DNA of 54,030 nt from contig NZ_BMLQ01000003.1 of the NCBI RefSeq assembly GCF_014645315.1, forward strand, positions 1 through 54,030, in the 5' to 3' direction. Below are positions 9,647 to 16,338 of this stretch, piece after piece (the first letter of the stretch is position 1; every line of letters begins with the position of its first letter). The notes beneath the pieces were generated by a model that was given only the letters and a program-made list of their open reading frames with translations, had not been told where the DNA came from and made no database searches. Origin of the DNA: Citricoccus zhacaiensis. GTDB taxonomy: Bacteria > Actinomycetota > Actinomycetes > Actinomycetales > Micrococcaceae. Position numbers and translations under genes: made by a program.

Positions 9647-12600
9647 ATGAGGAATCACCCCGTACCGACTCATGGGGGAAAATTGCCGCAGGACCACCGA
9701 AATGCCACGGCGAACGATGAACGGACCCCGACGACCTCGGGTGGGGGACGCGGCAACGCAGTCCTGACGGCCGAAACCGAGCACGGTCGTACGCAGGAGC
9801 CGTCCCTCACGGAGGAACTGGCCCTGTACTCCGGTGGACCGGCCGCCACGCCACGGACCCTCGTGGACATCCTGCGGGAGACCATCGCCAGCTACCCGGG
9901 GGCCCAGGCCGTGGACGACGGCACCACCGCCCTCAGCTACGCCGAGTTCGGTGAGCGGGTGGACGAGATGGCCCGGCGCCTGTGGTCCATGGACATCGGC
10001 GCGGGGGACCGCGTGGGAATCCGTGTGCCCTCCGGCAGTATCGACCTCTACGTGGCGATCCTCGGGACCCTCACAGCCGGTGCTGCCTACGTGCCCGTCG
10101 ACGCGGACGAGCCGGACGAGCGCGCCGGCACGGTCTGGGCCGAGGCCGGGGTGTGCGCCGTCGTGACCGAGGGCCTGACGATCTCGGCCCGGCCGGGCGT
10201 GGCCACGGTGGGCGGGGCCCCCGAGCCGCATCCGGAGGACGACGCGTGGATCATCTTCACGTCCGGCTCCACGGGCAAGCCCAAGGGCGTGGCCATCACC
10301 CATCGGTCCGCTGCGGCCTGGGCGGACGCCGAGGCGCAGATGTTCCTCCAGGCCGAGCCGCTGACGCGGGGTGACCGGGTGCTGGCCGGACTGTCGGTGG
10401 CCTTCGACGCCTCCTGTGAGGAGATGTGGCTGGCCTGGCGCAACGGTGCCTGCCTGGTGCCGGCGCCACGCTCACTCGTCCGTTCCGGTGAGGATCTCGG
10501 CCCCTGGCTGGCCGAACGGCGCATCACCGCTGTCTCCACTGTGCCCACCCTGGCGGCCATGTGGCCGCAGGAGGCCCTGGACAACATCCGTCTGCTGATC
10601 TTCGGCGGCGAGGCCCTGCCGGGTGAACTCGTGACGAGGCTGGCCGGCCCGGGGCGGGAACTGTGGAACACCTATGGCCCGACGGAGGCAACCGTCATCG
10701 CCTGCGGCGCCGCGCTGGACGGGGACGGCCCCGTGTCGATCGGGCTGCCGCTGCGGGGATGGGAACTGGCCGTCGTCGACCCCCAAGGCGATCCGGTCCG
10801 GTGGGGCGAGACCGGTGAGCTCATCATCGGCGGCGTCGGGCTGGGACGGTACCTGGACGCGGCCAAGGACGCCGAGAAGTACGCCCCGATGCCCTCCCTG
10901 GGTTGGGAGCGCGCCTACCGCAGCGGCGACCTCGTGGTCGCCGAACCCGACGGGCTGTTGTTCGCCGGGCGGGTGGACGATCAGATCAAGCTCGGCGGCC
11001 GCCGCGTGGAACTGGGTGAGATCGATGACACCCTGAGCCGCCTGCCCGGCGTGGCCGCCGGGGCGGCCGCCGTCCAGTCCACCCCGAGCGGGAACAAGGT
11101 CCTGGCCGGCTACCTGTTGCCTGAGCCCGGAACCACCCTGGACCTGAGCGCCCTGCGGCGCCGCCTGGCCGAGCAGCTTCCGGCCCCCTTGGTGCCGGCG
11201 CTGGCCGTCATGGACGAATTGCCGCTGAAGACCTCCGGCAAGGTGGACCGGAAGGCCCTGCCCTGGCCGGTGCAGCAGGCCGACGGCTCCGGGCACCAGT
11301 TGAGCGGGACCGAGGGCTGGATCGCCGACCTGTGGACCGAGCTGCTCGGCCCGCTCCCGCTGGACGGGGACAGCGACTTCTTCGCCTCGGGAGGGGCCAG
11401 CCTGGCGGCGGCCCATCTTGTCGGGAAGCTGCGAAGCCAGTACCCGGACGTGTCCATCGCGGACATCTACGCCCATCCCACCCTGGGAGCGCTCGCTGCG
11501 CACCTGGAAGGCCTGGAGTCCGGCGAGGACGAGGAACGCGAGCGTGAACCCACCCCGTGGTGGACGGGGCTGGTCCAGCTCCCCGTGATCCTGGGTCTCT
11601 ACGGGATCACGGGTCTGCGGTACCTGACCGGCATCGGCATCGTGTGCTGGTTCCTGTTCAACGTGGCACCCTTCCCGACCCTGTGGGTGCCGAATCCGCC
11701 GGTGTGGATCCTGATCACCGCCTGGGCCGTGCTGTTCAGCCTGCCCTCGCGGATCGTGTTCGCCGCGGCGGCATCGCGGCTGCTGACCGCCGGGATCGCG
11801 CCCGGGACCTATCCGCGGGGCGGAGCGGTCCACCTGAGGATCTGGGCCGCCGAACGGATCGTGACCTTCGGCAAGCTGGAACCGATCATGGGGACCTCTT
11901 GGGGCATCGCCTACGCCCGTCTGCTCGGCAACCGGATCGGCCGGGACGTCCACCTGGATGCCATGCCGCCGGTCACCGGCCTGATGAGCGTCGGTGCCTG
12001 CGCGTCGATCGAGTACGAGGTCGACCTGGGCGGGCATTGGCTGGACGGCGATCACCTCCACGTCGGCGCGCTGGAGATCGGCACGGGGGCCCGCGTGGGC
12101 ACCCGATCCGTGCTCATGGACGGCGCCTGCCTGGGGGAGAACGCCGAGGTCGATCCCGGGACCGTGGTCTCTGGCCCGGTTCCGGCCGGTGAACGCTGGG
12201 CCGGCTCGCAGATGGAGTACGTCGGCCAGGCCGGTGACGAGTGGCCGGTGTCCGAGCGGCCCCATCACGGGCGCCGTGGGGTCCAGCTGCTCTTCCCGCT
12301 GTCCCTGTTCGGCCTGGGCCTGCTGCCGGTGGTGTCGGTGGTGCCGGGAACCCTCGTGGTGATGTGGACCGTTCAGTTCCAGCAACTGGCACTGCTCTCC
12401 GACGTGCTGTGGGCCCTGGCCGCGCTGGTCCCCGTGTTCGCCGTGCTCACAGTGCTGACCTTCCTGTCCCTGATCGCAGGGGCGGTCCGATTGCTGGCCC
12501 GGCTGATCGTCCCAGGGCTGCATCCGTTGCATTCGGCCGCCGGCTGGGCGGTATGGCTCAGCAACCTGTTGCTCGCCAGGACCCTCATCGCGGTCTATCC

Positions 12601-13786
12601 GATCTACGCCAGCGTCCTGACCCCGCTGTGGTTCCGACTCCTCGGTGCCCGGGTGGGGCGCCACGTGGAGATCTCGACGCTGGAGTCGATCCCGCACCTG
12701 ACCGTCCTGGGTGATCGGTCCTTCATGGCCGACCACTCGATGGGCACCTCGGCTCGGGTGCGCCGGGGGTGGATGCACGTGGGCCCGACCTCCGTGGGAA
12801 GCCGGTCCTTCGTCGGCAACTCGGCCGTCGTCGGTCCGGACCGCCACGTGCCGGACCGCTCCCTCGTGGCCGTGCTCTCCTCGGCGCCGCGGGACATGCC
12901 GGAGGCCTCCAACTTCTTCGGCCGCCCCGCCGTCGAGCTGCCCCGGCCGGTGGACGGCGCAGACTCCGGACTGACCTATGACCCTCCCACGCAGCTCGTC
13001 GCCGCCCGTGCGGCCGTGGAGGCCTTCCGCCTCCTGCCCTTCATGATCGCCGCCTGGCTGGCCCTGGCCACCGTCTGGGTCATCTCCGAGATCTTGGACA
13101 ACGGCGGGTTCTGGGCCGCGGTGGCACTGTCCGGATTGGTGATGCTCGCCAGCAGCACCGTGGCCTGCACCATTGCCCTGGTGGCCAAGTGGGCCCTGGT
13201 CGGACGGTTCAAACCCGGCCGGCATGCCCTGTGGACGAGCTTCGTCTGGCGGAACGAGCTCGCGGACGTGTTCTCCGAGTCCCTGGCGGTGCCCGGGCTG
13301 GTCAGGATGAGCCTGGGCACACCGATGCTCAACATCTGGCTGCGGCTCATGGGGGCGAAGGTCGGCCGCCGCGTGTGGTGCGAGACCTGGTGGCTGCCGG
13401 AGTTCGACGTCATCGAGATCGGCCACGGGGTCAGCATCAATCGGGGCACCGTGCTCCAGACCCACCTCTTTCACGACCGCATCATGCGGATCGATCCCGT
13501 CCGGATGGAGGATCGATCCACCCTGGGTCCGAACAGCGTGCTGCTGCCCGGCAGCGTCGTCGAAGACGGCGCGACCGTGGGCCCCGGCTCGTTGGTCATG
13601 GCCCAGGAGACCGTTCCGGCCCACGGGCGCTGGGCCGGCAATCCGATCAGCCGCTGGGATCGGAAGTGGACCACGTCAGCCGGCCCGTCCGTGGCCGTGC
13701 CCGCCTCCTCGGGCCCTGTCCCGTCCGGCTCCCTGCGCACCGATCCGATCAACCGCACCATCACGACTGAAGGGCAAGCACGATGA
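9647..13786 (+). CDS. Pls/PosA-type membrane nonribosomal peptide synthetase (candidate epsilon-poly-lysine synthetase)
   Basis: About 1,379 residues. An adenylation domain comes first: A3 TSGSTGKPKGVA, A4 FDASCEEMW, A5 YGPTEATV, A7 YRSGDL, A8 GRVDDQIKLGGRRVELGE, A10 TSGKVDRKALP. A carrier domain follows, with FFASGGASLAAAHL (pantetheine Ser in GGAS). Then three repeats of two membrane helices plus a hexapeptide/acyltransferase-like soluble domain: six TM segments and three C-terminal modules. This is the layout of Streptomyces Pls, which links lysines through epsilon-amines. Read by eye against GrsA, the substrate code is DAESIGTVIK, which resembles a published lysine code. Start uncertain: ATG 9647 is used, a TTG at 9683 follows GGGGGA, and the frame is open to 9524. 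The stop overlaps the dapA-like start. Confidence 0.85.
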   Translation: MRNHPVPTHGGKLPQDHRNATANDERTPTTSGGGRGNAVLTAETEHGRTQEPSLTEELALYSGGPAATPRTLVDILRETIASYPGAQAVDDGTTALSYAEFGERVDEMARRLWSMDIGAGDRVGIRVPSGSIDLYVAILGTLTAGAAYVPVDADEPDERAGTVWAEAGVCAVVTEGLTISARPGVATVGGAPEPHPEDDAWIIFTSGSTGKPKGVAITHRSAAAWADAEAQMFLQAEPLTRGDRVLAGLSVAFDASCEEMWLAWRNGACLVPAPRSLVRSGEDLGPWLAERRITAVSTVPTLAAMWPQEALDNIRLLIFGGEALPGELVTRLAGPGRELWNTYGPTEATVIACGAALDGDGPVSIGLPLRGWELAVVDPQGDPVRWGETGELIIGGVGLGRYLDAAKDAEKYAPMPSLGWERAYRSGDLVVAEPDGLLFAGRVDDQIKLGGRRVELGEIDDTLSRLPGVAAGAAAVQSTPSGNKVLAGYLLPEPGTTLDLSALRRRLAEQLPAPLVPALAVMDELPLKTSGKVDRKALPWPVQQADGSGHQLSGTEGWIADLWTELLGPLPLDGDSDFFASGGASLAAAHLVGKLRSQYPDVSIADIYAHPTLGALAAHLEGLESGEDEEREREPTPWWTGLVQLPVILGLYGITGLRYLTGIGIVCWFLFNVAPFPTLWVPNPPVWILITAWAVLFSLPSRIVFAAAASRLLTAGIAPGTYPRGGAVHLRIWAAERIVTFGKLEPIMGTSWGIAYARLLGNRIGRDVHLDAMPPVTGLMSVGACASIEYEVDLGGHWLDGDHLHVGALEIGTGARVGTRSVLMDGACLGENAEVDPGTVVSGPVPAGERWAGSQMEYVGQAGDEWPVSERPHHGRRGVQLLFPLSLFGLGLLPVVSVVPGTLVVMWTVQFQQLALLSDVLWALAALVPVFAVLTVLTFLSLIAGAVRLLARLIVPGLHPLHSAAGWAVWLSNLLLARTLIAVYPIYASVLTPLWFRLLGARVGRHVEISTLESIPHLTVLGDRSFMADHSMGTSARVRRGWMHVGPTSVGSRSFVGNSAVVGPDRHVPDRSLVAVLSSAPRDMPEASNFFGRPAVELPRPVDGADSGLTYDPPTQLVAARAAVEAFRLLPFMIAAWLALATVWVISEILDNGGFWAAVALSGLVMLASSTVACTIALVAKWALVGRFKPGRHALWTSFVWRNELADVFSESLAVPGLVRMSLGTPMLNIWLRLMGAKVGRRVWCETWWLPEFDVIEIGHGVSINRGTVLQTHLFHDRIMRIDPVRMEDRSTLGPNSVLLPGSVVEDGATVGPGSLVMAQETVPAHGRWAGNPISRWDRKWTTSAGPSVAVPASSGPVPSGSLRTDPINRTITTEGQAR

Positions 13787-14805
13787 GTATGGTTCCCGAC
13801 AGGCTCGACACCGACTCGACCACTGCCAACGCCCCGAATGCGGCCTCCGCTGCGTTCGGCCGGGTCATCACCGCCATGGTGACGCCGTTCGACCACGCCG
13901 GCCGGCTGGACGAACGGGGCACGGAACGGCTGGCTGCCTGGCTGACCCGCGATGGCTGGAACGATTCCGTGGTGGTCAACGGCACCACCGGTGAGTCGAT
14001 CTCCACCACTGACCGGGAGAAGTCCCGGGCCATCCGCGCCGCCAAGCTGGGTGCCGCAGCCCATGGCGGCAAAGTGATCGCGGGCGTCGGGGCCGGGAGC
14101 ACGGCCCACAGCATCAAGCTGGCCAAGGAGGCGGCCTCGTCCGGTGCTGACGGGCTGCTCGTCGTGGCACCGTATTATTCCTGCCCCGGCCAGGCCGGAC
14201 TGCTGAAGCACCTGCTGGCCGTGGCCGACGCCACCAAGCTTCCCGTGATGATCTACGACATCCCCAAGCGCACCGGCATCGCGATCGAGACCGAGACGGT
14301 CCTGGCCGCCGCACGGCACCCACGCATCCTGGCCGTCAAGGAGGCCAAGGGCGATCTTGAGGGGGCCACCGAGGTCATGGGACAGACACACCTGGCGTAC
14401 TACTCGGGCGACGATGCGCTGAACCTGCCCTGGCTGTCCGTGGGGGCCACCGGCTTCGTGTCGGTGGTCGGCCACGTGGTGGGTGACCAGCTCACCCAGC
14501 TGGTGCAGCATCACGTCCACGGCCGGAACGCGGAGGCCCTGGCGCTGCACCGCCACCTCATGCCGCTCTTCCGCGGGATGTTCTGGGCCCCCGGTGCCGC
14601 GTCGGCCAAGGCCGCGCTGGGTGACCTGGGACTACCCGGCGGACCAGTGCGCCTGCCACTGGTCGATCTGACCGAGGGGCAGCGGCGCGAGCTGCGCCAC
14701 GTCCTGGCCGGGACGGTGACCGAGATGGGCGCGCCGGCGGATCCCGCCCGGGTGCCCACCGGCTGGCTTCCCGCAGAGGCCGCGGTCGGACGGGTCGGCC
14801 GGTGA
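13783..14805 (+). CDS. 4-hydroxy-tetrahydrodipicolinate synthase (DapA family)
   Basis: A 340-residue (beta/alpha)8 aldolase of the DapA family, the first committed step toward diaminopimelate and lysine. The active-site residues of the E. coli enzyme can all be placed: Thr44-type in VNGTTGES, Tyr107-type in PYYSCP, Tyr133 and Arg138 in MIYDIPKRTG, and the Schiff-base Lys in ILAVKEAKGD. It therefore looks like a genuine DapA and not a remote sialate or KDG aldolase relative. Its ATG overlaps the synthetase stop (ATGA) and its own stop overlaps the next GTG (GTGA), so the three genes are translationally coupled. A dedicated lysine-precursor enzyme beside a synthetase with a lysine-like code is meaningful. 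It may not be the cell's only DapA. Confidence 0.88.
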   Translation: MSMVPDRLDTDSTTANAPNAASAAFGRVITAMVTPFDHAGRLDERGTERLAAWLTRDGWNDSVVVNGTTGESISTTDREKSRAIRAAKLGAAAHGGKVIAGVGAGSTAHSIKLAKEAASSGADGLLVVAPYYSCPGQAGLLKHLLAVADATKLPVMIYDIPKRTGIAIETETVLAAARHPRILAVKEAKGDLEGATEVMGQTHLAYYSGDDALNLPWLSVGATGFVSVVGHVVGDQLTQLVQHHVHGRNAEALALHRHLMPLFRGMFWAPGAASAKAALGDLGLPGGPVRLPLVDLTEGQRRELRHVLAGTVTEMGAPADPARVPTGWLPAEAAVGRVGR

Positions 14806-16034
14806 CCTCGACGGACGGACCAGCGGATCGCCTCGGCACCCAGGACGGAGCCGTGGTTGCCGTGCCACGCCGGTCGAGGCGGATCGTCGGCCTCGATGCC
14901 GCCCGCGGGCTCGCGCTGATCGGCATGATCGCCATCCACGTCCTGCCCGAGGTGACCGAGACCGGCGAGACCACCCTGATCTGGGACCTCGGCTCGGGCA
15001 TCTCGGCCGCCTTGTTCACGTTCCTGGCTGGCGTCTCCCTGGCGCTGATGACCGGAGGCAACAAACCGGCGACCGGCGAGGCGCTGGCGGCCAAGCGGGT
15101 CGGCATCGCCGTCCGGGCCGTGGTGCTCATCGTCATCGGGCTGATGCTGGCGATCCTCAATCCGCCGGCCGGGATCATCCTGACCTACTACGGTGTCATG
15201 TTCCTCATGGCCATACCGCTGCTCGGGGCGCCCGCGCCGATGATCGCCACCGTGGCCGGAGTGTTCGCGCTGGCGGGGTCGCTGTTCATCCACCTCGTCG
15301 GCAACGCGATGCCGAACCTGGACGGTTATGACCCGTCGCTCGGCTCCCTCGTCGCCGAGCCGGACGCCACGATCGCCGCACTGCTGGTCACCGGCACCTA
15401 CCCCGTCCTGGCGTGGTCTGCCTTCCTCTGCGCCGGCCTCACCGTCGGACGGTTCAACCTGACCCTGCGGGACACCCACCTCAGGCTGATGGTGGTGGGC
15501 CTGACCATGGCACTGGTCACCTGGCTCGTCTCGTGGCTGTCCATCGAGGTCCTCGGCGGGTTCGACCGGGTCCTCGCGACCACGCCCGGGCTGACGGAGG
15601 ACGAGCTGGTGCGGTCACTGACCTGGGGCCTGGAGTTCACCACCCCGGACATCACCTCGGGCTGGTGGCTGCTGATGCTGTCACCGTATTCCGAGACCCC
15701 CGTGGAGGTCCTCAATGCCCTGGGCTGGGCCTTGGCCTGCCTGGGGGCCATGCTCTGGCTGGGTCAGCGGATCGGGACGTGGCTCCGGCCGCTGGCCCTG
15801 GTCGGCTCCATGACGCTCACGCTCTACGTGGTCCACCTGATCTTCCTGGCGACCGGACTGCTGCAGGAGTCCCCGTACATCTCGTTCTGGCTGCAGGTGG
15901 GCCTGGCCCTGCTGTTCGTGGTGCTCTGGCGCAATGTCACGGAGCGGTCCCAGGGCCCGCTGGAATGGATGACCACCACGGCCTCGTCCGCGGGGCAGCG
16001 GTGGTACCGGAGTCGAAAGTCCGGACGGTCCTGA
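14802..16034 (+). CDS. Membrane acyltransferase-like protein (HGSNAT/DUF418 type)
   Basis: A 410-residue polytopic membrane protein with roughly nine to ten hydrophobic segments. The start RRIVGLDAARGLALIGMIA is the signature of the heparan-alpha-glucosaminide N-acetyltransferase-like/DUF418 group, and the end (SMTLTLYVVHLIFLATGLL) matches the DUF418 tail. Members are thought to move acyl groups across membranes, but few are characterised. The GTG start overlaps the dapA-like stop, making this the third gene of the coupled operon. An obvious hypothesis is acylation or handling of the peptide made by the synthetase; the sequence does not prove this. A basic C-terminus follows the last helix. 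Confidence 0.72.
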   Translation: MTSTDGPADRLGTQDGAVVAVPRRSRRIVGLDAARGLALIGMIAIHVLPEVTETGETTLIWDLGSGISAALFTFLAGVSLALMTGGNKPATGEALAAKRVGIAVRAVVLIVIGLMLAILNPPAGIILTYYGVMFLMAIPLLGAPAPMIATVAGVFALAGSLFIHLVGNAMPNLDGYDPSLGSLVAEPDATIAALLVTGTYPVLAWSAFLCAGLTVGRFNLTLRDTHLRLMVVGLTMALVTWLVSWLSIEVLGGFDRVLATTPGLTEDELVRSLTWGLEFTTPDITSGWWLLMLSPYSETPVEVLNALGWALACLGAMLWLGQRIGTWLRPLALVGSMTLTLYVVHLIFLATGLLQESPYISFWLQVGLALLFVVLWRNVTERSQGPLEWMTTTASSAGQRWYRSRKSGRS

Positions 16035-16068: not shown

Positions 16069-16338
16069 GTGACCATTGATCTCGCAGCCCGGGAGCAGGC
16101 CGGCCGTGCGCTCTACGAGCAGCGGATGGCGTTGCTGCCCGGACTGGGCCAGCCGCCAGCGCCGGCCTGGGAGGACCTGTCGGACGGCGAACGCGAACGC
16201 TGGTGCCGCCACACCGACGGTCCGGTGCCGGGCCTCGGCCCGACGCGCACCCGGCCCGTGACACGCACCCCGGGTGCCAGGGCCGACGGCGTGGACGGTG
16301 CCCCTGTGGACGACGCGACGCGGGCCCGCAGAGCGTAG
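16069..16338 (+). CDS. Small hypothetical protein
   Basis: An 89-residue open frame starting with GTG directly after a TAAAAT box. The N-terminal half is Glu/Arg/Leu-rich and likely helical (AREQAGRALYEQRMALLPGL, then WEDLSDGERERW). The C-terminal half is Pro/Arg/Thr-rich and probably disordered. The WEDLSDGERERW piece resembles short segments found in small actinobacterial proteins of unknown function. It stands alone between the synthetase operon and the IclR gene. I do not recognise a function. Confidence 0.5.
   Translation: MTIDLAAREQAGRALYEQRMALLPGLGQPPAPAWEDLSDGERERWCRHTDGPVPGLGPTRTRPVTRTPGARADGVDGAPVDDATRARRA

What the first reader, a model, noticed from the sequence alone, without database searches (positions are those of the whole stretch)
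9647..16034. Coupled operon of a Pls/PosA-type synthetase, a complete DapA and a membrane acyltransferase: candidate epsilon-poly-lysine-type pathway with its own lysine-precursor enzyme
Seen: the synthetase has A and PCP domains, six membrane helices and three tandem C-terminal domains, the Streptomyces Pls layout. Its stop overlaps the dapA-like start (ATGA), whose stop overlaps the acyltransferase start (GTGA). The DapA protein keeps every catalytic residue I can place. Known: Pls makes epsilon-poly-L-lysine; DapA commits aspartate semialdehyde to lysine/DAP. Inferred: the operon couples precursor supply, polymerisation and possibly acylation or export of a cationic isopeptide. I recall no characterised system with this trio.
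Basis: partly seen in the sequence, partly recalled or inferred. Interest (0 to 1): 0.85.

Follow-up and report, generated by a model that had tools for sequence, protein, structure and literature searches.

The report
Polylysine synthetase operon carrying own DapA
An actinobacterium carries a compact gene set that should string lysine into a positively charged polymer and brings along its own spare enzyme for making more lysine, an arrangement shared by some of its relatives.

Summary
The trio is real. pls 9647-13786 overlaps dapA 13783-14805 by ATGA, which overlaps an acyltransferase gene 14802-16034 by GTGA. The synthetase is a Pls/PosA protein (TIGR02353) whose A-domain code, DAESIGTVIK, differs at one position from the solved epsilon-polylysine synthase domain 7wew. 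The DapA passes its family cut-off, keeps its catalytic residues and is distinct from the housekeeping copy. The third protein resembles HGSNAT. The order is conserved: of 31 genomes (395 family genomes searched) with this DapA, 28 have it between pls and the acyltransferase. Among 57 distinct loci of this Pls clade, 29 have dapA, 26 only the acyltransferase, 2 are cut at contig ends. A small fourth gene (16069-16338) goes with the dapA-bearing branch. At the same locus in three sister species pls and the acyltransferase are gone; the DapA left behind has K161M, losing its Schiff-base lysine, in 3 of 3, against 0 of 28 beside pls. A beta-lysine-code Pls in one sister species also sits with dapA and a KamA-family gene. 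Best reading: a lysine-homopolymer locus with a dedicated lysine-supply enzyme. Pls in such bacteria is already known; the dedicated DapA and HGSNAT-like partner are the new part. The product is untested.

The parts
9647..13786 (+). pls: Pls/PosA-family membrane-bound NRPS-like synthetase, 1379 aa
   Evidence: TIGR02353 607.5 bits, cut-off 423.1; best solved relative 7wew, epsilon-poly-L-lysine synthase
9875..11266 (+). adenylation domain, code DAESIGTVIK (lysine type)
   Evidence: PF00501 and TIGR01733; alignment to 7wew_A over residues 51-544, 634 bits against 350 for the next; code from alignment
11318..11506 (+). peptidyl carrier (thiolation) domain
   Evidence: PF00550, residues 558-620
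11552..13681 (+). three repeats of membrane hairpin plus beta-helix (C1-C3)
   Evidence: AlphaFold2 model mean pLDDT 90.7; Foldseek hits are hexapeptide-type acetyltransferases over single repeats; hydropathy pairs
13783..13786 (+). ATGA overlap of pls stop and dapA start
   Evidence: sequence
13783..14805 (+). dapA paralogue (4-hydroxy-tetrahydrodipicolinate synthase), 340 aa
   Evidence: TIGR00674 250.8 bits, cut-off 206.15; catalytic residues; clade apart from housekeeping copies
14802..14805 (+). GTGA overlap of dapA stop and acyltransferase start
   Evidence: sequence
14802..16034 (+). HGSNAT-like multi-pass membrane acyltransferase, 410 aa
   Evidence: PF07786 41.2 bits, cut-off 22; model pLDDT 91.2; the 12 Foldseek hits with E<=0.001 are ten named human HGSNAT chains and two titled only 'membrane proteins'
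16069..16338 (+). small conserved protein, 89 aa, no Pfam match; probable downstream member of the cluster
   Evidence: relatives (E<=1e-3) in 32 of 33 loci of the dapA-bearing Pls branch and in none of the other Pls loci among the 184 searched; no Pfam match

Best explanation
The locus makes a lysine isopeptide homopolymer of the epsilon-poly-L-lysine type. The A domain activates L-lysine, the carrier domain holds it, and the three membrane-anchored beta-helix domains condense and release the chain (known for Pls, inferred here by homology). The co-translated DapA is an extra, active DHDP synthase that pulls aspartate semialdehyde into the lysine branch when the synthetase is expressed. The HGSNAT-like membrane protein most likely acylates an amine with cytosolic acyl-CoA, either on the polymer or on a surface target, as tailoring or self-protection. 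Shown: domains, code, active-site residues, conserved order, and loss of the DapA active site where pls is gone. Inferred: co-translation, lysine flux, product and acyl transfer.
For: Code DAESIGTVIK; 7wew gives DAESIGTVVK when read by eye off its alignment, and alanine at the second position is the lysine type in PMC10522769 (passages). In 28 of 31 genomes with this DapA it stands between pls and the acyltransferase on one strand. The pls-associated DapAs group apart from 30 housekeeping copies (100/98) and keep K161, R138, Y133, Y107 and T44 in 28 of 28 and T45 in 27 of 28. Three pls-less sister species have K161M in 3 of 3 and T44A or T45A, at the same locus and as sister group of the window DapAs (98/91). 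A Pls with code DGESVSVVNK, close to the published beta-lysine code, has dapA, an acyltransferase and a KamA-family gene beside it. Overexpressing dapA raised epsilon-PL production 19.8% in Streptomyces diastatochromogenes (Li 2021, as cited in PMC8506220, passages).
Against: dapA is dispensable: 26 of 57 loci of the clade lack it, and three members of the dapA branch appear to have lost it (L042, L195, L197). The host has a housekeeping dapA, and both copies differ from E. coli at most lysine-binding residues, so relief from feedback inhibition is no clear reason for a second copy. The three lone DapAs are related, so K161M may be one event; they still have open frames and dN/dS of 0.23-0.38, so they are not simply dead and could have a second role. 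No product or expression data, and the promoter scan found nothing. Acyltransferases of this family are multi-copy in the genome and also lie in the flanks of housekeeping dapA in 20 of 30 loci, so partnership with the polymer is not certain.
Confidence: 0.68

Rival explanations
1. The polymer is as above, but DapA was carried along as a neutral or general metabolic passenger and is not coupled to the polymer; its lysine goes to cell wall and protein.
For: A housekeeping dapA exists, the extra copy is absent from some loci of its branch that keep pls, and it persists as an open frame in three species without pls.
Against: 28 of 31 genomes with this DapA have it directly between pls and the acyltransferase; the active site is lost in 3 of 3 copies left without pls and in 0 of 28 with it; the same DapA clade sits with a beta-lysine-code Pls and a KamA-family gene.
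Confidence: 0.15
2. The DapA paralogue has a changed reaction (another aldol or lyase product used as polymer cap or signal) and is not a DHDP synthase.
For: The clade is well separated from housekeeping copies, differs from them at positions 48, 49, 56 and 80 of the E. coli lysine site, and the window copy has a C-terminal extension.
Against: It keeps R138, Y133, Y107, T44 and K161, and scores over the dapA equivalog cut-off while staying below the cut-offs of the other aldolase models listed.
Confidence: 0.08
3. The locus makes plain epsilon-PL (or is silent in culture), and the acyltransferase modifies the cell surface, not the polymer, to protect the producer. This differs from the best explanation only in the third gene.
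For: In the other Pls clade an M1 peptidase sits downstream of pls (60 of 67 loci); the Streptomyces peptidase PldII is an epsilon-PL-degrading enzyme postulated to protect the producer (PMC8117764); HGSNAT-like paralogues also lie elsewhere in the genome.
Against: 19 of 29 dapA-bearing loci have an M1 peptidase nearby as well, so the acyltransferase does not simply stand in for it.
Confidence: 0.35

Closest known systems
Streptomyces albulus epsilon-poly-L-lysine synthetase (Pls) with PldII
   Same: A-T-(membrane hairpin plus beta-helix) x3 layout (layout of Pls from PMC8117764); A-domain code identical to 7wew in 9 of 10 positions (that 7wew is the S. albulus enzyme is recalled)
   Different: No PldII-type M1 peptidase found beside the window copy; dapA and an HGSNAT-like gene are there instead. 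The window genome's other Pls (C4) is of the peptidase type.
Corynebacterium variabile Pls (Jiang 2021, PMC8117764, parts 1 and 2 of 4 read)
   Same: Coryneform Pls, shown there to make epsilon-PL in S. coelicolor
   Different: [quoted passage not shown] no dapA mentioned in the parts read
gamma-poly-diaminobutyrate clusters with dat and ask (PMC8117764 Fig. 1 legend)
   Same: Precursor-supply genes beside a Pls-family synthetase
   Different: Diaminobutyrate polymers, not lysine; PMC10522769 gives a phenylalanine at code position 2 for PDAP/PDAB synthetases
PosA, delta-poly-L-ornithine synthetase of Acinetobacter baumannii (PMC10522769, passages)
   Same: Same protein family; same Asp and Glu at code positions 1 and 3
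   Different: Code DMEHNGTVSK (ornithine); alanine at position 2 here points to lysine
Human HGSNAT (8vlg and others)
   Same: Fold: ten of the 12 Foldseek hits with E<=0.001 are named HGSNAT, the other two are titled 'membrane proteins'
   Different: 13-15% identity, query TM-score 0.47-0.49, rmsd about 8-9 A, substrate unknown

Membership tests
Pls/PosA cationic isopeptide synthetase | TIGR02353 terminal region over the curated cut-off | tested here: met
   607.5 against 423.1 bits
Pls/PosA cationic isopeptide synthetase | A and T domains, no classical condensation or thioesterase domain | tested here: met
   Only AMP-binding, PP-binding, Hexapep and Hexapep_2 found in Pfam at E<=0.001
Pls/PosA cationic isopeptide synthetase | Six membrane segments and three tandem C domains | tested here: met
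   Three hairpin plus beta-helix repeats, pLDDT 90.7; hydropathy pairs
Epsilon-poly-L-lysine synthetase | Lysine-type A-domain code (Asp1, Ala2, Glu3) | tested here: met
   DAESIGTVIK; 7wew alignment; rule from PMC10522769 passages
Epsilon-poly-L-lysine synthetase | Makes epsilon-poly-L-lysine | not testable with these tools
   No experiment possible
Canonical pls-pldII operon | M1 peptidase gene beside pls | tested here: not met
   No match of 100 bits or more in the stretches searched around the window pls (about 8 kb downstream) and its two same-genus orthologues (about 6 kb downstream); the C4 paralogue has it
DapA (4-hydroxy-tetrahydrodipicolinate synthase) | TIGR00674 over cut-off and below the cut-offs of sister aldolase models | tested here: met
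   250.8 against 206.15 bits; HpaI-like, NanA and KdgD models below their cut-offs
DapA (4-hydroxy-tetrahydrodipicolinate synthase) | Catalytic T44, T45, Y107, Y133, R138, K161 | tested here: met
   residue roles recalled, E. coli sequence from L293
DapA (4-hydroxy-tetrahydrodipicolinate synthase) | Enzyme activity | not testable with these tools
   Needs an assay
HGSNAT-like transmembrane acyltransferase | PF07786 over gathering score | tested here: met
   41.2 against 22 bits; 34 of 34 aligned sequences match at E<=0.001
HGSNAT-like transmembrane acyltransferase | HGSNAT fold | tested here: met
   Foldseek E 3.4e-5, probability 1.00, but TM-score only 0.49 and rmsd 8.8 A for the best hit
HGSNAT-like transmembrane acyltransferase | Catalytic histidine of the human enzyme | tested here: inconclusive
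   H46 and H345 are invariant in 34 sequences; a profile search of PDB sequences gave no HGSNAT match, so the human position was not matched

The most novel reading that the evidence does not exclude
A second kind of polylysine locus, in which the synthetase is paired with an HGSNAT-like enzyme that acylates the cationic isopeptide across the membrane using cytosolic acyl-CoA, giving a capped or partly acylated polymer. One branch of Micrococcaceae added a dedicated DapA that stays catalytic only while the polymer is made.
Probability: 0.25. Interest if true: 0.72.

Novelty: new variant of a known kind. Interest (0 to 1): 0.55.

Why it matters
Epsilon-polylysine is a commercial food preservative (PMC8117764), and engineers have raised its yield by adding dapA (PMC8506220); this locus suggests that evolution did the same and placed the two genes in overlapping frames. 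The sister species without pls offer a natural knock-out that makes the coupling testable. The acyltransferase partner points to a possibly modified polymer for which my searches found no report, and the natural role of epsilon-PL is said to be less well understood (PMC8117764).

Tried and rejected
A lysine-insensitive second DapA as the reason for the duplication: rejected as a distinguishing feature, because the housekeeping copies also differ from E. coli at most lysine-site residues. Isoleucine against valine at code position 9 as a marker of the two Pls classes: rejected, because Nesterenkonia-type dapA loci have VV. 'The acyltransferase replaces the peptidase': first suggested with a 3.5 kb limit, withdrawn after one search showed ORFs further downstream, three of which one search matched to Peptidase_M1, and recounted at 7.5 kb and 150 bits (19 of 29 dapA loci). 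Independent recruitment of dapA by the beta-lysine-code cluster: not claimed, since its DapA falls in the same clade, although on a long branch at an open fork. A dapA 'deletion' in L194 is an unreadable stretch in the sequence. In one search automatic code reading gave wrong letters at positions 5-6 for some rows; one search replaced it by alignment. Two class I loci have a DapA-family gene nearby that is not of the window clade: L255 (73 bits, 28%, on the other strand, dropped by the 140-bit limit) and L084 (other strand, 2.8 kb upstream; no match, nearest to housekeeping copies at 98 bits). Promoter and terminator scan: 0 promoters (0.3 expected), 2 terminators (1.5 expected).

Rows dropped before counts. 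L190, L191, L165, L177, L179 and L172 (duplicates or the housekeeping locus) left out and L194 set apart. L194 left out; duplicates and fragmentary rows left out (L172, L177, L179, L196, L200, L207, L208, L209, L213, L223, L232), rows under 1150 residues removed, the class I rows of the 80-locus set thinned to every fifth and every second row of L243-L262 removed; eight duplicate rows left out.

Literature: ten searches of the open-access library showed no title or abstract, and the passages I opened no text, describing a pls-dapA operon; subscription papers are not covered.
Full report
OBSERVATION. The synthetase has an A domain, a carrier domain and a Pls/PosA terminal region at 607.5 bits (cut-off 423.1). 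The model of residues 636-1345 has mean pLDDT 90.7 and reads as three repeats of helical hairpin and beta helix. Foldseek finds hexapeptide-type acetyltransferases for it.

WHAT THE SYNTHETASE ACTIVATES. The closest solved structure is 7wew, the A domain of an epsilon-poly-L-lysine synthase: 634 bits against 350 for the next, over residues 51-544. The code read from an alignment is DAESIGTVIK; 7wew, read by eye off the phmmer alignment, gives DAESIGTVVK. The PosA paper states that Asp and Glu at positions 1 and 3 are conserved in these enzymes and that alanine at position 2 goes with lysine (PMC10522769, passages seen). So lysine is the likely monomer.

TWO LYSINE-TYPE Pls CLASSES. Pls proteins at E<=1e-280 to the window Pls occur in 215 of 395 family genomes. 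The window genome has a second Pls (C4, 52% identical). All 8 genomes held for the genus have that copy, each with an M1-peptidase-like gene downstream; 3 of 8 have the window copy. Among 80 named loci (the best 80 of at least 593), 67 have code DAESIGTVVK without dapA or the acyltransferase, and 60 of these have the peptidase within 3.5 kb; 8 have the acyltransferase only; 4 have dapA and the acyltransferase; 1 is cut at the contig end. A FastTree of 110 Pls proteins (rows thinned, see Tried and rejected) puts the window type in one clade of 56 (support 99) and the peptidase type in another of 44 (98), 42 of which have the peptidase; the program warns of long branches and of an outgroup that is not one side of a branch. 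In the 57 distinct loci of the window clade, 29 have dapA plus acyltransferase, 26 the acyltransferase only, and 2 lie at contig ends. An M1 peptidase (150 bits or more) lies within 7.5 kb of 19 of the 29 dapA loci and of 0 of the 26 others; in L040 and L194 it lies on the other side, and in L040 a peptidase-type Pls is the neighbour. None was found near the window pls. The dapA loci of the clade sit in one branch of 33 (support 91): 29 with dapA, three without (L042, L195, L197), and the truncated L048, which has only a dapA fragment upstream. One gain and three losses is the simplest history.

CONSERVATION OF THE TRIO. A search of 395 family genomes (a sample) with the window DapA at E<=1e-95 hit 31, in 8 of 32 genera. 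In 28 of these the DapA stands directly between a window-type pls and an acyltransferase on the same strand. Of the 32 best Pls matches in the same genomes (1686 bits or more), 29 have dapA, one of them with an unreadable stretch (L194); three do not.

THE DapA. It passes the dapA equivalog cut-off. The housekeeping copy is elsewhere, beside RNase J. In an IQ-TREE tree rooted on E. coli, the pls-associated DapAs form their own group (32 rows, 100/98) apart from 30 housekeeping copies (94/86). Against E. coli DapA, 28 of 28 trio DapAs keep T44, Y107, Y133, R138 and K161, and 27 of 28 keep T45 (the exception is L040). The lysine-site residues S48 A49 H53 H56 G78 N80 E84 Y106 of E. coli read SIDKGGHY in the window and TSDNGNHY in the housekeeping copy; both lack the two histidines and the glutamate, so no difference in feedback is claimed. 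The choice of sites is recalled.

A NATURAL KNOCK-OUT. At the same place, between the ABC transporter genes and the IclR-pobA genes, three species (G002, G004, G005) have only dapA, and two (G003, G007) have no match to pls, dapA or the acyltransferase beyond chance. The lone DapAs are the sister group of the window DapAs (98/91), so loss of pls and the acyltransferase around them is the simplest reading. All three have K161M; two have T44A, one T45A, one Y133C. Their pairwise dN/dS (NG86) is 0.36, 0.38 and 0.23, against 0.09, 0.15 and 0.15 for the three window-type copies. So the active site goes when pls goes, while some constraint on the protein may remain. The sample is three related sequences, two of them near copies (96% identical): K161M may be one shared event, with later changes.

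A SECOND, DIFFERENT Pls WITH dapA. G002 also carries a distant Pls (33-35% identical) with code DGESVSVVNK, close to the published epsilon-poly-beta-lysine code DGESISVVNK (PMC10522769). Beside it are a DapA of the same clade, an acyltransferase, a GNAT gene and a KamA-family radical SAM gene (TIGR00238 246.4 bits, cut-off 199.2; below the lysine 2,3-aminomutase equivalog cut-off). Its genes have GC3 of 0.72-0.78, against 0.83-0.94 for the genes further out. Lysine supply followed by conversion to beta-lysine is the obvious reading. In 7 of 7 loci with codes beginning DFE from the class search, and in the DFE locus L131, no dapA of this kind was found. Nor was one found in the 20 lysine-code loci of the class searches.

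THE ACYLTRANSFERASE. All 34 aligned sequences match HGSNAT_cat. The model has mean pLDDT 91.2. The only 12 Foldseek hits with E<=0.001 are ten human HGSNAT chains and two chains titled 'membrane proteins', with query TM-score 0.47-0.49 and 13-15% identity. HGSNAT acetylates an amine on the far side of a membrane with cytosolic acetyl-CoA (recalled). H46 and H345 are invariant. A profile search of PDB sequences gave no HGSNAT match, so catalytic residues were not mapped. Caveat: the genome has five further loci matching this protein, and in 20 of 30 housekeeping dapA loci a relative lies in the flanks of about 1.5 kb. The family's link to dapA may therefore be older than its link to this operon.

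A FOURTH GENE. The ORF at 16069-16338 has relatives with the motif ALYEeR..LL.GL..P.AP.W..L.....RW in 32 distinct loci of the dapA-bearing branch of 33 (all but the truncated L048), including the three without dapA, and in none of the other Pls loci among the 184 searched. In 30 of the 32 it lies on the pls strand beyond the acyltransferase, at 38-199 or 1027-1426 bases; in L166 and L167 it lies elsewhere. Weak remnants are found in two lone-dapA loci (L163, L164). No Pfam family matches the window protein.

KNOWN CONTEXT. Pls homologues in coryneform actinobacteria, including Arthrobacter and Micrococcus, and epsilon-PL production by a Corynebacterium Pls expressed in S. coelicolor are published (PMC8117764, parts 1 and 2 of 4 read). 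Clusters for diaminobutyrate polymers with dat and ask are in its figure legend. A review reports a 19.8% rise in epsilon-PL on overexpressing dapA (PMC8506220, passages). One study notes that its Micrococcaceae strains share NAPAA clusters (PMC11078813, passages). I found no report of a pls-dapA operon in ten searches of the open-access library.

VERDICT. A real, conserved variant of a known kind of locus. The lysine-polymer and supply reading is well supported by sequence; the acylation reading is open.

Noticed in passing
G000:C4:18000-21950 (L019, L122): Second Pls paralogue, peptidase type, present in 8 of 8 genomes held for the genus. Upstream ORFs on the other strand look by eye like arginine-biosynthesis genes (not tested).
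   Followed up: partly
L162 8447-9502, L163 8900-9949, L164 9381-10430: Lone DapA copies with K161M and T44A or T45A: candidate pseudoenzymes still under some constraint.
   Followed up: partly
L130 5893-14198: Cluster with KamA-family gene, dapA, beta-lysine-code Pls, acyltransferase and GNAT gene, with low GC3, possibly acquired.
   Followed up: partly
L263-L292 (housekeeping dapA loci): A relative of the HGSNAT-like acyltransferase lies in the flanks (about 1.5 kb) of housekeeping dapA in 20 of 30 loci.
   Followed up: no
window 16069-16338: Small conserved gene restricted, among 184 Pls loci searched, to the dapA-bearing Pls branch, with no Pfam match.
   Followed up: partly
L044, L170, L174, L175, L182-L189: Twelve distinct loci have two acyltransferase genes flanking pls-dapA, the extra one upstream and divergent, and an M1 peptidase within 7.5 kb.
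   Followed up: partly
G000:C1:272034-280445 (L193): A 3566-residue open frame with several A and carrier domain matches, probably a conventional multimodular NRPS; a similar frame is in G006.
   Followed up: no
L131 8893-13422: Distant Pls-like protein in G005 with code DFECLSVVTK and an acyltransferase about 2.3 kb downstream.
   Followed up: no
L236: A DFE-code Pls locus with an HGSNAT-like relative nearby (149 bits), so the acyltransferase partner is not limited to lysine codes.
   Followed up: no
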